Translations under genes and position numbers: made by a program
In this document: positions 53,032-59,053 of the stretch, one piece after another
How positions within the stretch are numbered: position 1 is the first letter of the stretch
Layout: every line of letters starts with the position of its first letter
Notes under the pieces: generated by a model
Seen by the model: only the letters and a program-made list of their open reading frames with translations
Told to the model about the DNA's origin: nothing
Databases searched by the model: none
DNA from: Listeria ivanovii subsp. londoniensis
Lineage (GTDB): Bacteria; Bacillota; Bacilli; Lactobacillales; Listeriaceae
Assembly: GCF_000763495.1 (NCBI RefSeq)
Contig: NZ_CP009576.1
Span: forward strand, 2,118,001 to 2,182,000
Direction of reading: 5' to 3'
DNA length: 64,000 nucleotides

Positions 53032-53898
53032 ATGCTAAAAACACTTCGCACTAAAAACATTTGTTTTATCATGCTTGGGACAGCGATTTATGCTTTCGGA
53101 CTCGTAAACTTTAATATCGCCAATAATTTAGGGGAAGGTGGCCTTGCGGGGGTAACGCTTTTCTTGCTTCATTTCTTTCAAATTGATCCAGCTTACTCTA
53201 ACTTAGTTCTAAATATCCCATTATTCATTTTAGGCTGGCGTGTTTTAGGCAACCGTTCTCTTATCTATACAGGGATTGGAACAGTAAGTTTATCGCTATT
53301 TTTATGGATTTTCCAGCGTATTCCTTATACCTTAGATTTACATAATGATTTACTGCTAGTCGCGCTGTTTGCAGGTGGTTTTAGTGGCATTGGTTTAGGT
53401 CTAGTATTCCGGTACGGTGGAACAACTGGTGGTAGCGATATTATTGCCAAACTACTAAATCATACCAAAGGAATTAGCATGGGACGAACCCTTTTTGCGA
53501 TTGATGCGATTGTTCTACTTGCCTCGCTTTCTTACTTAGATATTCGCCAAGTGATGTATACGCTTGTCGCAGTTTTCATCGGTTCACGTGTTATCGATTT
53601 TGTCCAAGAAGGCGCTTATGCAGCTCGTGGGGCCCTCATTATTTCCAAAAATAATGACTTAATCGCCTCTCATGTAATGCTTTCGATGAACCGTGGTGTG
53701 ACAGTTTTAGAAGGCCGTGGTGGTTTTTCTAAAAGTGAGCAAGACGTTTTGTATATTGTTGTCGCTAAAAATGAAATTGTTCAGTTAAAAAATATCGTCC
53801 AAGCAGTCGATCCTCATGCATTTGTATCCGTTAGTGTCGTTCATGATGTGATGGGCGAAGGATTTACATTAGATGAAAATAAAAATCCTATTTACTAA
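53032..53898 (+). CDS. YitT/DUF161-family membrane protein
   Basis: 288 aa. Five to six transmembrane helices (about 10-190) with the family motif FRYGGTTGGSDIIAKLLN, then a cytoplasmic DUF2179 domain ending ALIISKNNDLIASHVM and VSVVHDVMGEGF. Function unknown. The start is the ATG at 53032-53034 with AGGAGG 7 nt upstream; an earlier TTG is rejected. Its end overlaps the convergent FAD oxidoreductase gene by 11 nt. Confidence 0.88.
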   Translation: MLKTLRTKNICFIMLGTAIYAFGLVNFNIANNLGEGGLAGVTLFLLHFFQIDPAYSNLVLNIPLFILGWRVLGNRSLIYTGIGTVSLSLFLWIFQRIPYTLDLHNDLLLVALFAGGFSGIGLGLVFRYGGTTGGSDIIAKLLNHTKGISMGRTLFAIDAIVLLASLSYLDIRQVMYTLVAVFIGSRVIDFVQEGAYAARGALIISKNNDLIASHVMLSMNRGVTVLEGRGGFSKSEQDVLYIVVAKNEIVQLKNIVQAVDPHAFVSVSVVHDVMGEGFTLDENKNPIY

Positions 53899-54994
53899 TA
53901 TACTTGCTAGGTAAATAATTCGCTAGTGGTAATTCACTTGTCCAACCTAGTGCTAAATCTGCTAAAATTTTACCTACATAAGGGCCTGTGGTTAATCCAG
54001 AAGCACCAAGTCCATTAGCAAGAAAAACGGATTCCAAACCTGGAAGTGAACCAATTAATGGGGCAAAGTCTGGTGTATAAGGCCTTGTTCCAACAGTCAC
54101 ATTCGCTATTTTTTCAGAAGTAGCCTGCTCCATAAAATAGCTCACTTCCGCTAAAATCTCTGCTTGACCTGCTACTGTTGGCTCGATATCGAAGCCAGCA
54201 GTTTTTTCGTGGGTTGCACCTACAATAACCCGCCCACTTTCAAAAGGGACAATCGATTTAGCGCTAGGTGGTAAAATAACTGGCCAGTCATCCGTAGCCC
54301 ATTCCTCGAAATCCAGTTCAAGTAATTGACCTTTTTGTGCCAAGACATCCGTTTTATATCCAGCATCAGCTAGAAAACTCGCCAGCCATGCTCCTGTCGC
54401 GATGATTAATTTATCATAGTTTTCTTTCCCACCAGTTACATGTACTTCCCCCGTTGCTGAAAAAGTCGCTTTACCAGATAAAATTCTCACTCCATTTTCT
54501 TGTGCTGCCTCTAGTAAAGTCCGGCAAAAAAGGCCACCATTTACTCTAGCAGCGCCACTTACAAAGATAGAACTAAATCCAGGCTTTACTAATGGGAATT
54601 TCTGTTTTGTTTCAGCTTCTGTTAACTTCTCAATCACTCCCATAACTGGTGCATCCGCTCGTCTTTCCTTTGCAAGATTAAAAAGCTGCTCGGTTTTTTC
54701 CGTTGTTGGTCTAAGTGCAAGGGCGCCTACTTGTTTGTATCCAGTTTCTTTGCCTGTATCATCAGCGAGCATTTGTGCTATCTTCGGATAAAAGGTAGCG
54801 CTATTTTTAGCTAATTCATACCAATACTTATTTCGTCTTTTAGAAAGCCATGGACAAATGATTCCAGCAGCTGCTCGACTAGCTTGTCCTGGTTCATTCG
54901 AATCAATTAATGTAACCTCAACGTTCTCTTTAGATAATAAATAGGCCGCACTCGCTCCAACGATTCCTGCACCAATAATCACGATTTTTTCCAT
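53888..54994 (-). CDS. FAD-dependent oxidoreductase of the DAO/ThiO/DadA family
   Basis: 368 aa. FAD-binding N-terminus IVIIGAGIVGASAAYLLS with the downstream RAAAGIICPW, and C-terminal GTRPYTPDFAPLIGS and FLANGLGASGLTTGPYVGK. This is a glycine/D-amino acid oxidase type; the substrate is unknown and no thiamine genes are nearby. Weak ribosome site GGGGTG. Confidence 0.88.
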   Translation of the reverse strand: MEKIVIIGAGIVGASAAYLLSKENVEVTLIDSNEPGQASRAAAGIICPWLSKRRNKYWYELAKNSATFYPKIAQMLADDTGKETGYKQVGALALRPTTEKTEQLFNLAKERRADAPVMGVIEKLTEAETKQKFPLVKPGFSSIFVSGAARVNGGLFCRTLLEAAQENGVRILSGKATFSATGEVHVTGGKENYDKLIIATGAWLASFLADAGYKTDVLAQKGQLLELDFEEWATDDWPVILPPSAKSIVPFESGRVIVGATHEKTAGFDIEPTVAGQAEILAEVSYFMEQATSEKIANVTVGTRPYTPDFAPLIGSLPGLESVFLANGLGASGLTTGPYVGKILADLALGWTSELPLANYLPSKYISK

Positions 54995-55310: not shown

Positions 55311-55948
55311 ATGCTAAATATTCTTGAATCCTTATGGAGTAGCATGGCGCTTTTTTTATCAGCGCTTTTTTTCACGGAATGGCACTACGGTCGCTTCGAG
55401 ATAAAAAACCTACTTGGTTCCAAAACAAATTCGCCAATGAAATTATCAATTATTCATTGGGTATTTATTATGGTTTCTTAGGGGTGTACTTCATTATTCG
55501 TGGGTTTCCAGGGACGGATTCTGGAATTTATACAGATACGTTACTCAATATTTTAATCGTCTTGAACTTATTTTCATCTGCTGGTCCGGCAACCCTTGCA
55601 TTACTACTTATTATTTCGGGAAAAATAATTTTAGGCGATGCATTATTTTCTAATCTTTTTTACGTTTTTTTAATTATTGGTTTTCATTTTGTTTGTGTGG
55701 AAGCAGCAAAACTCCGCTTAAGCACTGTTCGTAAAGTCGTACTAATTAAACTTGGCGCTATTCCGCTGATGCTTCTATACTTACATCAAAAAATCTATAT
55801 TGCTTATTCTAAGGAACCGCATTATCTTGCTGAGAGCATTGGACTGTATATGGAATACTTAGTGGAAGTAAATGATAGTGCTGAATTTCAAAAACAAGTG
55901 GCTTTACTACAGAAAAACTTTATTACAGAAGATAACTTTATAAAATAG
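55311..55948 (+). pseudogene. Remnant of a membrane diguanylate cyclase (sensor part only)
   Basis: An ATG at 55311 with AGGAG upstream opens MLNILESLWSSMALFLSALFF; one base missing from a run of seven T (55366-55372) throws it out of frame. The main frame continues from about 55373 as a polytopic membrane segment (SLRDKKPTWFQNKFANEII; then about five helices) to a stop at 55948. It looks like the N-terminal membrane domain of the Listeria DgcA/DgcB type, and the GGDEF catalytic domain is absent. The assignment rests on context (before an EAL gene) and topology. Confidence 0.65.
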
Positions 55949-56598
55949 GAAGTAGCCAAGAATACAACAACAAATGCCATTGTTGATGACTTCCGAATAA
56001 CCGAAGCATTATATAGCGCGAGTAAAAAGTTCGAGCATCCTGCTTATAAAAAATTAGCAGATACCCTTTTAAAAAACACTCAAAAGTATAGTTCCAAAGA
56101 AAATATACCCGTTGACTTCTATGATTTTGTGCAAAAAAAGTAGCTAATACCTTACATATAAGTTACATGAACATTCCCGCAATGAAGCATACCAATTATC
56201 CAGAAATTGCCTATCAGCCAATCCAAACGGTTAGTGCAGAACCTTTTTTACAGAAGTGTTTCAAAACGGACAATTTCTATTTGCAGATGTAGAAGAAGTA
56301 AATATGATTGATCAGATGCTTATTACGATGACAACGGCTTTACAGAGCCAAATTTCAATAAATTTCTTCAAGACGAACTTTCTTCCAAAAACAAAATTTA
56401 CGCTCGCTATAATCGAAAAACGAAAAAACCAACTTCTGAAAATGAATCCACCGCAGTTTATGCCTTTTTGACACAGTATTTTAACAAGACAAATCAACTT
56501 AAAAATGGTAAACCCCCAAAGAGTTATTACAAAAAATGGACACGTCTAATCCTGAAACGACTCATTTTTTTGATTATATAAATAAAGAAATAACGTAA
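55949..56598 (+). pseudogene. Remnant of a glycosidase-like gene of a c-di-GMP exopolysaccharide locus
   Basis: Directly after the previous stop, in the same frame, comes NAIVDDFRITEALYSASKKF, then further fragments in other frames: NTLHISYMNIPAMKHTNYPE, DVEEVNMIDQML, DNGFTEPNF, YARYNRKTKKPTSENESTAV and KELLQKMDTSNPETTHFF to a stop at 56598. At least three frameshifts are needed. The pattern suggests an alpha/alpha-barrel glycosidase like the YdaJ/GH8 type; the identity is tentative. The N-terminal half is missing. Confidence 0.6.
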
Positions 56599-56611
56599 AG
56601 AAGTTGGACAA

Positions 56612-57297
56612 ATGAAAAAGCCCTCCGTAAGTGAAATTATTGGTCAAAATCTTTTTGATACAATATACGAACCGATTGTTGCGGTTGAAAATACCCAAGT
56701 TTTCGGCTATGAATCACTCACCCGTTTACAAACGAATCACTGGAATGCTATTAGTGATTTTATTAAAAAAGCGGAACAGGATGGTCTGCAAAAAGCATTT
56801 GAGCTGCTGACTCTTCATAATGCAGTTAAATGCTTTCACAAAAACAGTGATATACCCTTATTTATCAATATTTCCTATGATGCTTTTTTAGAGAATCAAG
56901 AAGAACTTCAGGAAATACTTCTTGATAACAGGAAAATAGTTTTTGAATTTCGGGAAACTTCCAAGCTACCACAAGAACGAATGAACGACCTAGACGAACA
57001 ACTCCTTTTATTCCAGAAAAAAACATCAAACTAAATTTGCTATTGATGATTTTGGTTCTGGTTACGCTGACCTGCACCGTGTCTTTGCACACCATTCTGC
57101 CTTTGTAAAAACAGATCGCTTATTACTGCGAGATTTGTTTCAGAGTGATGGTAAAAAAAATCTTCTTTGAGCAACTTAATAATTACGTAAAAAAGCATCA
57201 CAAATCTTTCATTGTTGAAGGCGTCGAAACAAAAGAGCAGCTGACGTTTTTGCAAGACATTGGCGTACCTTATGCACAAGGCTATTATTTTCATTAA
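56612..57297 (+). pseudogene. EAL-domain c-di-GMP phosphodiesterase, frameshifted (PdeC-like)
   Basis: About 228 codons of one EAL domain in three frames. YEPIVAVENTQVFGYESLTR holds the catalytic glutamate region; LFINISYDAF, VFEFRETSKL follow. Frame is lost at the A run near 57020-57026, then FAIDDFGSGYADLHRV (DDFGSGY motif) and FVKTDRLLLRDL; lost again at the A run near 57155, then FIVEGVETKEQLTFL, then DIGVPYAQGYYFH to the stop at 57297. All catalytic motifs survive but in different frames, so no active enzyme can be made. Confidence 0.85.
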
Positions 57298-57409: not shown

Positions 57410-59053
57410 ATGACTTTAAAAACTGGTTTTGATTATTTAAACAATCCCCTTTTAAATAAAGGTACCGCTTTTTCCAAAGAAGAAAGGCTTACTTATCAAT
57501 TAAATGGTTTACTACCACCAATTATTGAAACAATCGAACAGCAAGCAACACGTATAGAGCACCAAATAGAAGACCTCCAAACAGCATTACATAAGCATCA
57601 ATTATTAACCAATTTGTATAATGAAAATCGTACACTTTATTATTATGTTGTCAATAAAAATGTAACAGAATATTTACCACTAATATATACACCAACTATT
57701 GGTGACGCAGTTATGAACTATCATAAAGACTATACTTCTCCAGATGAAGCATTATTTATAGATGCTTTTGCACCCGAAAGCCTAACTAGTTCTTTGCAAA
57801 ATTATGCAAAAATAAATCCACATATTGATATGATTGTTATTACAGACGGGGAAGGTGTGCTCGGAATTGGCGATTGGGGAGTTAATGGTGTTAAAATTGC
57901 TGTTGGTAAGCTTGCTGTTTATACCGTTGCCGCTGGACTTTCCCCTGACCGGGTATTACCTGTTATCATAGATGCGGGCACTAACAATGAAACATTACTT
58001 CAAGATCCAAAATATATTGGAAACAAACGTCCTCGCCTAGCTGAAACAGCATATGACACATTTATTGCTCAATTTGTGGAAACAGTAAAAACTTTCTTCC
58101 CTAAAGCTATTCTTCACTGGGAAGATTTTGGTAGAGCGAATGCTAGTCGGATATTGCACCAGTATCGCAATGAAATTTGTACGTTTAATGATGATATTCA
58201 AGGCACTGGAGCGATGGTTGTTGCAGCAGCACTTGCAACGATTAATGTATCTAAAATCCCACTTAGCAAACAAAAAATTATTATTTTTGGTGCAGGTACT
58301 GCTGGAATTGGAATTGCCGACCAACTAAGTGGACAATTAATGCGTGAAACTGGTCTTCCTTTTGAACAAGCTAAAAAACATTTTTACCTTGTAGATCGAC
58401 ATGGTCTCGTAGTAGATAATATGGCTGATTTAACAACGGGACAAACAAAATATGCGCATGCTCATTCTGACTGGATAGGCACGCCAACAGAAACATTAGA
58501 ACAACTAGTAGCCAATATTCATCCGACAATGCTTATTGGCTGTTCTGGTGTCACTGGAGCATTCAAGGAGAGCATTGTTCGAAAAATGGCAAAATATACC
58601 GAACATCCGGCAATTTTACCACTTTCCAATCCAACCAAGTTAGCTGAAGCAACAGCAAATGATTTAATTAAATGGACAGCTGGAAAGGCACTTATCGTCA
58701 CAGGAAGTCCTTCAAAACCAGTCGAATTCCAAAATACTACTTACGAAATTGGTCAAGCGAACAACGCGCTACTTTATCCCGGGCTGGGTCTCGGAGCACT
58801 TATCACGCGGTCTAAATATATCACTGATGGAATGTTAGCTGCTGCTTCAAAAGCCGTCGCTAACCAAGTTTCACCAGACAAACCTGGTGCAGCTCTTTTA
58901 CCACATGTTCGTACACTTAGAGAAACCTCTCGGCAGGTAGCCATTGCAGTCGCAAATCAAGCAATTCATGAGAAAATCCATCAAGTAGAAATCGAAAATG
59001 TCACAACCGCTGTTGACCTGGAAATGTGGCAACCAACTTACAAAGGAGTTTAG
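57410..59053 (+). CDS. mleS: Malolactic enzyme (malic enzyme family)
   Basis: 547 aa. Malic enzyme fold: YTPTIGDAVMNY (Tyr), ITDGEGVLGIGDWGVNG, catalytic Lys region, HWEDFGRANASRIL metal-binding segment, FNDDIQGTGA, and the NAD-binding GAGTAGIGIAD. The length and NAD-type loop fit malolactic enzymes, which convert L-malate to L-lactate plus CO2; malic enzyme activity cannot be excluded. AAGGAG upstream. It ends 2 nt before the beta-lactamase-like gene. No malate permease is next to it. Confidence 0.85.
   Translation: MTLKTGFDYLNNPLLNKGTAFSKEERLTYQLNGLLPPIIETIEQQATRIEHQIEDLQTALHKHQLLTNLYNENRTLYYYVVNKNVTEYLPLIYTPTIGDAVMNYHKDYTSPDEALFIDAFAPESLTSSLQNYAKINPHIDMIVITDGEGVLGIGDWGVNGVKIAVGKLAVYTVAAGLSPDRVLPVIIDAGTNNETLLQDPKYIGNKRPRLAETAYDTFIAQFVETVKTFFPKAILHWEDFGRANASRILHQYRNEICTFNDDIQGTGAMVVAAALATINVSKIPLSKQKIIIFGAGTAGIGIADQLSGQLMRETGLPFEQAKKHFYLVDRHGLVVDNMADLTTGQTKYAHAHSDWIGTPTETLEQLVANIHPTMLIGCSGVTGAFKESIVRKMAKYTEHPAILPLSNPTKLAEATANDLIKWTAGKALIVTGSPSKPVEFQNTTYEIGQANNALLYPGLGLGALITRSKYITDGMLAAASKAVANQVSPDKPGAALLPHVRTLRETSRQVAIAVANQAIHEKIHQVEIENVTTAVDLEMWQPTYKGV

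What the first reader, a model, noticed from the sequence alone, without database searches (positions are those of the whole stretch)
55311..57297. Decayed cyclic-di-GMP / exopolysaccharide signalling locus
Seen: three consecutive gene remnants in one direction (membrane sensor part of a cyclase, glycosidase-like gene, EAL phosphodiesterase) with at least six frame disruptions in 2 kb. Known (from memory): in L. monocytogenes EGD-e this position between the FAD oxidoreductase and the malolactic enzyme holds intact dgcA, dgcB, lmo1913 and pdeC, which make and break c-di-GMP for exopolysaccharide control. Inference: this lineage lost the locus, and the catalytic residues remain readable, so the loss is recent.
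Basis: partly seen in the sequence, partly recalled or inferred. Interest (0 to 1): 0.8.

Follow-up and report, generated by a model that had tools for sequence, protein, structure and literature searches.

The report
Dismantled Listeria c-di-GMP signalling operon
In this Listeria genome the gene cluster that makes and breaks the messenger c-di-GMP has collapsed into remnants, and matching losses in related Listeria suggest that this signalling module has been discarded several times independently.

Summary
Window 55311-57297 is the collapsed dgcA-dgcB-pssZ(lmo1913)-pdeC operon. A deletion of about 1.98 kb joins the membrane part of dgcA to pssZ, removing the dgcA GGDEF domain and dgcB. What is left has six 1-bp indels, two small deletions and a nonsense codon. 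Neighbouring coding DNA has three 1-bp indels in 54.6 kb, so sequencing error is unlikely. By size the genome is probably L. ivanovii subsp. londoniensis WSLC 30151. Its near relative G013 keeps all four genes open.

The loss is network-wide: dgcC is broken, the pss site and pdeB are deleted, pdeD is intact. L. immobilis lost the cyclases, pssZ, pss and pdeB with different breakpoints, and two more genomes lost the operon. In 25 genomes of the genus, open GGDEF genes and PssC occur in the same 19. A 2014 paper calls these enzymes highly conserved in L. ivanovii.

This is an ordinary pseudogene locus within a recurrent module loss for which I found no report. The open question is why PdeD outlives its cyclases.

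The parts
53888..54994 (-). FAD-dependent oxidoreductase, intact left neighbour
   Evidence: 368-aa ORF; same length in G013 and G020. Name from the finding; no family search of it was run.
55311..55810 (+). dgcA remnant: 5' membrane part only, early 1-bp frameshift in a homopolymer, GGDEF domain deleted
   Evidence: Alignment to G013; tract comparison
55811..55812 (+). Deletion junction; about 1,982 bp present in G013 (dgcA GGDEF part, all dgcB, start of pssZ) are missing here
55379..55948 (+). Chance chimeric ORF of 189 aa: DgcA membrane part read in frame into PssZ, ending at the nonsense codon
   Evidence: no Pfam match
55812..56593 (+). pssZ (lmo1913, exopolysaccharide glycosidase) remnant: start and signal part deleted, nonsense codon, three 1-bp indels, 13-bp and 14-bp deletions (end approximate)
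   Evidence: family identity by PDB profile search of relatives
56612..57297 (+). pdeC (EAL phosphodiesterase) remnant, two 1-bp indels splitting it into three reading frames
57410..59053 (+). Malolactic enzyme gene, intact right neighbour
   Evidence: 547-aa ORF; four Listeria orthologues 82-84% identical. Name from the finding; no family search of it was run.

Best explanation
The locus is a non-functional relic of the Listeria c-di-GMP operon. An internal deletion removed the catalytic part of DgcA, all of DgcB and the start of PssZ; small indels and a stop codon lie in what is left (the order of these events is inferred). It belongs to a network-wide collapse. With DgcC broken as well, the genome has no intact GGDEF cyclase (shown), so the cell should make no c-di-GMP by that route (inferred). 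The site of the c-di-GMP-activated Pss exopolysaccharide operon and pdeB are deleted (shown), presumably because they became useless, and PdeD is the only intact part found (shown). The module has been lost independently elsewhere in Listeria (shown by different breakpoints), most likely because Pss exopolysaccharide is dispensable in some niches (inferred).
For: Deletion and lesions against G013. One GGDEF match in the whole genome, with a stop inside the domain. PssC orthologue absent and the pss site reduced to short scraps by about 6.2 kb plus two smaller deletions. pdeB excised between intact neighbours. pdeD intact with its conserved residues. Open GGDEF genes and PssC present in the same 19 of 25 genomes. 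Deletions with other breakpoints at the operon in G011, G014 and G001, and in G011 also at pss, pdeB and dgcC. G000 and G013 are sisters with 100% support while G011 lies outside that pair. Elevated c-di-GMP induces Pss and inhibits invasion in L. monocytogenes (PMC4125290 passages).
Against: Only one genome of this lineage could be examined, so fixation is not shown. The source is probably a PacBio-only assembly, and five of the six 1-bp indels lie in homopolymers; single lesions could be errors, though the kb-scale deletions cannot. The nonsynonymous:synonymous ratio of the remnant is not significantly relaxed. No c-di-GMP measurement exists, and non-GGDEF routes were not searched for.
Confidence: 0.93

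Rival explanations
1. Assembly or sequencing artefact: the operon is intact in the organism and the frameshifts are PacBio consensus errors.
For: The reported assembly of the probable strain is PacBio only; five of six 1-bp indels are in homopolymers.
Against: 1-bp indels are about 55 times rarer in the other coding DNA of the same window (odds ratio). A 1.98-kb deletion, 13- and 14-bp deletions and a nonsense codon are not homopolymer errors. Three other loci of the same pathway (dgcC, pss, pdeB) are broken or missing.
Confidence: 0.02
2. The deletion made a working chimeric protein: the DgcA membrane sensor fused in frame to the front of PssZ (189-aa ORF) or, in L. immobilis, to the PdeC EAL domain (268-aa ORF), giving a membrane-tethered phosphodiesterase there.
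For: Both joints are in frame from the same internal Met. The L. immobilis EAL part is open, passes the Pfam cut-off at 125 bits and shows no higher share of nonsynonymous private changes than the G020 copy (14:14 against 10:10).
Against: In both genomes the normal start is cut off by a frameshift upstream of that Met, and reading the printed sequence by eye I saw no ribosome-binding site before it in L. immobilis. The G000 chimera has no Pfam match and lies in otherwise decaying DNA.
Confidence: 0.04
3. Loss was selected rather than merely tolerated: low c-di-GMP and no Pss favour invasion, so a ruminant pathogen gains by losing the module.
For: High c-di-GMP lowers L. monocytogenes invasion and a heterologous phosphodiesterase raises it about 2-fold (PMC4125290 passages). 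Loss of PGA in Salmonella was argued to be adaptive (PMC5464674 abstract).
Against: A similar loss occurred in L. immobilis, presumed non-pathogenic by its describers (PMC8289207 passages), and operon loss in two further genomes (G001, G014), while G013, probably the other L. ivanovii subspecies, keeps most of the module. In mice the L. monocytogenes mutant with raised c-di-GMP colonised the intestine like the wild type (PMC4125290 passage).
Confidence: 0.2

Closest known systems
L. monocytogenes EGD-e dgcA-dgcB-lmo1913(pssZ)-pdeC operon (lmo1911-1914), PMC4125290 (passages)
   Same: Gene order and direction; same protein families.
   Different: Four genes there, with cyclase and phosphodiesterase activity shown for DgcA, DgcB and PdeC; here a fused, frameshifted remnant with dgcB missing.
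L. immobilis (G011; L012, L075) equivalent locus
   Same: Operon collapsed, dgcC, pss and pdeB gone, pdeD kept, same poly-T tract shortened.
   Different: Breakpoints differ at the operon, pss and pdeB; dgcA joined to pdeC, whose EAL part stays open (268-aa ORF), instead of to pssZ; dgcC cleanly absent instead of broken; flagellin absent there, present in G000.
Loss of the pgaABCD operon in Salmonella (PMC5464674, abstract) and parallel biofilm loss in invasive Salmonella (PMC6611641, abstract)
   Same: Loss of a c-di-GMP-dependent exopolysaccharide or of a biofilm programme in a pathogen lineage.
   Different: There c-di-GMP signalling itself persists (my inference and recall); here the cyclases are lost too.
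Truncated dgcB in an L. monocytogenes ST394 outbreak clone (PMC10269727, passages)
   Same: Decay of the same operon in Listeria.
   Different: One truncated gene reported in one clone and its SNP cluster, not a network collapse.

Membership tests
Diguanylate cyclase (GGDEF, PF00990) DgcA/DgcB | GGDEF domain present | tested here: not met
   Only one GGDEF match in the whole genome, at the dgcC locus, not in the window; G013 DgcA has it at 149 bits.
EAL phosphodiesterase PdeC (PF00563) | EAL domain with its conserved residues | tested here: met
   Pieces match at 53.9 and 38.7 bits, over the 31.3-bit cut-off, and a third piece at 24.5 bits, below it; motifs readable across three frames (motif positions recalled).
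EAL phosphodiesterase PdeC (PF00563) | One uninterrupted reading frame | tested here: not met
   Two 1-bp indels.
PssZ / Lmo1913 exopolysaccharide glycosidase (GH126, GH8-like) | Homology to the solved PssZ structure | tested here: met
   Profile of three Listeria relatives (A1) hits 6r2m (E 1.8e-198) and 3ren (E 3.8e-11); the remnant was aligned to G013 pssZ at DNA level. 6R2M is named as PssZ in PMC7479077 (passages). Neither the 71-aa piece of the remnant nor intact G013 PssZ has a Pfam match.
Pss exopolysaccharide operon pssA-E | PssC glycosyltransferase orthologue in the genome | tested here: not met
   Best G000 hit 91 bits at 32% identity, against 765-926 bits in 19 genomes. PssA, PssB and PssD were not searched one by one; the site itself is deleted.
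c-di-GMP signalling network | At least one intact GGDEF cyclase in the genome | tested here: not met
   dgcC has a stop inside the GGDEF domain, changes of frame and a gap of about 46 codons.
c-di-GMP signalling network | c-di-GMP produced in cells | not testable with these tools
   Needs nucleotide measurement.

The most novel reading that the evidence does not exclude
PdeD is kept for a job that does not need home-made c-di-GMP. It is the one network protein that survives full-length in three cyclase-free Listeria genomes (G000, G011, G014). In part of the genus (G007, G014, G023) its ExLxR arginine and a downstream glutamate have changed, as expected of an EAL protein turned regulator or given another substrate. 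Together with an 8-T tract in dgcA that is one T shorter in both cyclase-free sensu stricto genomes, this would make Listeria a natural series for watching a second-messenger network being taken apart in order.
Probability: 0.25. Interest if true: 0.6.

Novelty: new member of a known kind. Interest (0 to 1): 0.4.

Why it matters
A 2014 paper states that all c-di-GMP enzymes are highly conserved in L. ivanovii and other Listeria. This genome, probably a complete L. ivanovii reference, has none of the cyclases intact. Repeated collapse of the same module, with cyclases and the Pss operon lost together and one phosphodiesterase left over, shows which parts depend on each other. It also gives probable natural c-di-GMP-null Listeria in which a phosphodiesterase can be studied without its usual substrate supply.

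Tried and rejected
Ideas rejected. Sequencing artefact: rejected by the indel comparison and the kb-scale deletions. Transfer of a pdeB-less segment from L. immobilis together with the monocin locus: rejected, because the near-identical stretch ends before the pdeB site and the pdeB breakpoints differ. Strict link between c-di-GMP loss and flagellum loss: rejected, since G000 and G009 have flagellin but no intact GGDEF, and G006, G007, G008 and G023 the reverse. PilZ receptors as a leftover branch: no match in the eight genomes searched. Structure prediction of PssZ: mean pLDDT 46, discarded; not needed because a solved structure exists.

Weak points. The dN/dS figures for broken dgcA and pssZ come from misaligned joints and were not used. 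One search counts two stops; the one in dgcA lies at the deletion junction and is probably an alignment artefact, but it is included in the 31:30 count. The 'private change' counts use unequal comparison sets and bias against synonymous sites; they are used only to compare L. immobilis pdeC with the G020 copy. The same call gave G000 pdeD 6 nonsynonymous and 0 synonymous private changes, which taken at face value would mean relaxed or altered selection; the count with G020 as outgroup (6:9) does not show it. The PdeD alignment has 22 of the 23 PdeD-bearing genomes; G012 was dropped by a filter slip. The poly-T comparison covers 18 of 25 genomes. PssE itself counts as a GGDEF match, but each of the 19 genomes has other GGDEF matches too.

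Full report
What the window is. The window lies at 2,118,001-2,182,000 of a single-contig genome (G000) of 3,045,035 bp. L. ivanovii subsp. londoniensis WSLC 30151 is reported at 3,045,017 bp and subsp. ivanovii WSLC 3010 at 2,919,538 bp, both PacBio assemblies (PMC4319588, whole text). G013 has 2,919,550 bp. Sizes within 20 bp, and a monocin locus reported from 198,267 where my alignment to L. immobilis changes at about 198,264, make these identifications very likely. G011 is L. immobilis by contig-length match to a named record. I recall that 2,797,636 bp is the size of an L. seeligeri genome (G020); this comes from no call. 'Sensu stricto' and 'sensu lato' below are my assignment by identity.

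The observation. Between intact neighbours lie the membrane part of dgcA, most of pssZ (lmo1913) and pdeC. Compared with G013, about 1,982 bp are missing from inside dgcA to inside pssZ, so the dgcA GGDEF domain and dgcB are gone. What remains is 94-95% identical to G013, like the flanks. The small lesions are six 1-bp indels (five in homopolymer runs), a 13-bp and a 14-bp deletion, and one nonsense codon in pssZ. Open copies exist in G013 (383, 376, 336 and 227 aa) and in G020 (383, 377, 336 and 234 aa).

Error control. In the rest of the window aligned to G013, coding DNA (ORFs of 100 aa or more) has 3 single-base indels in 54,568 bases, intergenic DNA 27 in 6,159, and the remnant 6 in 1,991. 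The remnant differs from coding DNA (p = 1.4e-7) and not from intergenic DNA (p = 0.54), as unconstrained DNA would. Coding DNA also has 7 longer indels, 3 of them not multiples of three. The substitution pattern is less decided. With G020 as outgroup, this branch has 31 nonsynonymous or stop changes to 30 synonymous and the G013 branch 14 to 24 (p = 0.21). The loss happened after the split from G013; I cannot date it better.

The whole network in this genome. GGDEF: one match, at the dgcC locus, with a stop inside the domain, changes of frame and a gap of about 46 codons upstream. Pss: the PssC orthologue is absent (best hit 91 bits at 32% identity); at the pss site about 6.2 kb are missing, with two smaller deletions in the scraps left. 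PdeB: no orthologue, removed almost exactly between intact neighbours. PdeD: 236 aa, intact, conserved residues present; dN/dS to G013 is 0.19, equal to one neighbour (lmo0110, 0.19) and above the other (0.10). No PilZ match was found in G000 or in seven other genomes of the genus. G013 keeps dgcA, dgcB, pssZ, pdeC, the pss operon, pdeB and pdeD but has no dgcC orthologue.

Repeated loss. L. immobilis lacks all GGDEF genes. Its operon lost about 3.1 kb, joining dgcA to pdeC and leaving the EAL part open. Its pss site lost about 7.0 kb, pdeB is gone with another breakpoint, and dgcC is cleanly absent. G014 has lost the whole operon, while its near relative G023 (94% identical on one side of the site, 84-88% on the other) keeps it; G001 has a short dgcA-pdeC scrap. 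In a tree of 15 sensu stricto genomes from five flanking genes, G000 and G013 are sisters (100% ultrafast bootstrap) and G011 lies outside that pair. The losses at the operon are therefore independent in G000, G011 and G014, and probably in G001; for G014 and G001 I rely on identities and no tree. Of the 25 genomes that the tool gave for this genus, 19 have open GGDEF genes and the same 19 have a PssC orthologue (765-926 bits); six have neither (Fisher p = 5.6e-6 without correction for relatedness). EAL proteins that I assign to the PdeD type occur in 23 of 25, including all 19 and four of the six (G000, G011, G014 and a copy lacking its N-terminus in G001).

A slippage site. The dgcA start region has a run of 8 T in 13 of 13 sensu stricto genomes with open dgcA, dgcB and pdeC frames, and 7 T in both G000 and G011. 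Two sensu lato copies (G004, G010) have other sequence there, G023 gave no alignment, and the other seven genomes were not examined. The surrounding DNA of G000 and G011 is about 81-83% identical, so this looks like two separate slips at one weak spot.

PdeD. The 14 sensu stricto PdeD copies that I aligned keep the expected EAL residues (motif positions recalled). In G007, G014 and G023 the arginine of ExLxR is replaced; in those, in G001 and, mildly, in G006 a downstream glutamate is too. G006, G007 and G023 still have cyclases, so degeneration is not tied to cyclase loss. This counts against a simple 'orphan then decay' story and leaves a non-enzymatic role open.

What the parts do. PdeB-D hydrolyse c-di-GMP, DgcA-C make it, and PssE senses it to activate Pss; raised c-di-GMP reduces motility and invasion, and Pss raises tolerance to disinfectants and desiccation (PMC4125290 passages). 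PssZ degrades Pss (PMC11439720 passages; PMC7479077 passages). Pss helps colonise produce, and a laboratory c-di-GMP-null strain behaves like a Pss-deficient strain there (PMC10172500 passages). A lineage without cyclases should therefore have no use for PssE-activated Pss synthesis. Joint absence of the two is what the table of 25 genomes shows; the order of events is inferred.

Comparison with print. PMC4125290 says all the enzymes are highly conserved in other Listeria species, e.g. L. innocua, L. ivanovii, L. seeligeri and L. welshimeri. This genome is an exception if its identity is right. My searches for a report of the loss were: Listeria + c-di-GMP + pseudogene + ivanovii (none); Listeria + c-di-GMP + pdeC; Listeria + ivanovii + c-di-GMP; Listeria ivanovii + pseudogenes + genome + sensu stricto; pssA-E; loss of c-di-GMP; lmo1911/1912/1914; Listeria immobilis and others; PssZ. 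I saw no such report in the listings or in the passages read, but most listed papers were not opened and subscription journals are largely not held. A truncated dgcB in an L. monocytogenes ST394 clone is reported (PMC10269727 passages).

Verdict. The finding is real and correctly read. Taken alone it is an ordinary pseudogene operon. Its interest comes from the near-complete and repeated dismantling of one signalling module within a well-studied genus, and from the survival of PdeD.

Noticed in passing
L088:9001-16001 and L111:1-2500 (genome about 199.0-207.5 kb): The monocin (phage-tail bacteriocin) segment is 99-100% identical to L. immobilis in most 500-base bins, while bins on either side range from 73% to 95%: recent transfer between the two species. 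A second near-identical island lies at about 217.5-219.5 kb.
   Followed up: partly
L075:9655-10461: L. immobilis carries a 268-aa ORF joining the DgcA membrane part to the PdeC EAL domain, in frame, with the EAL residues kept but the normal start cut off.
   Followed up: partly
   Followed up: partly
G013 dgcC site: G013 (probably subsp. ivanovii) has no dgcC orthologue, and the dehydrogenase gene that lies beside dgcC in G000 has no match there either.
   Followed up: no
L098:7770-8501, L151, L153: PdeD-type proteins of G014, G023 and G007 have lost the ExLxR arginine and a downstream glutamate.
   Followed up: partly
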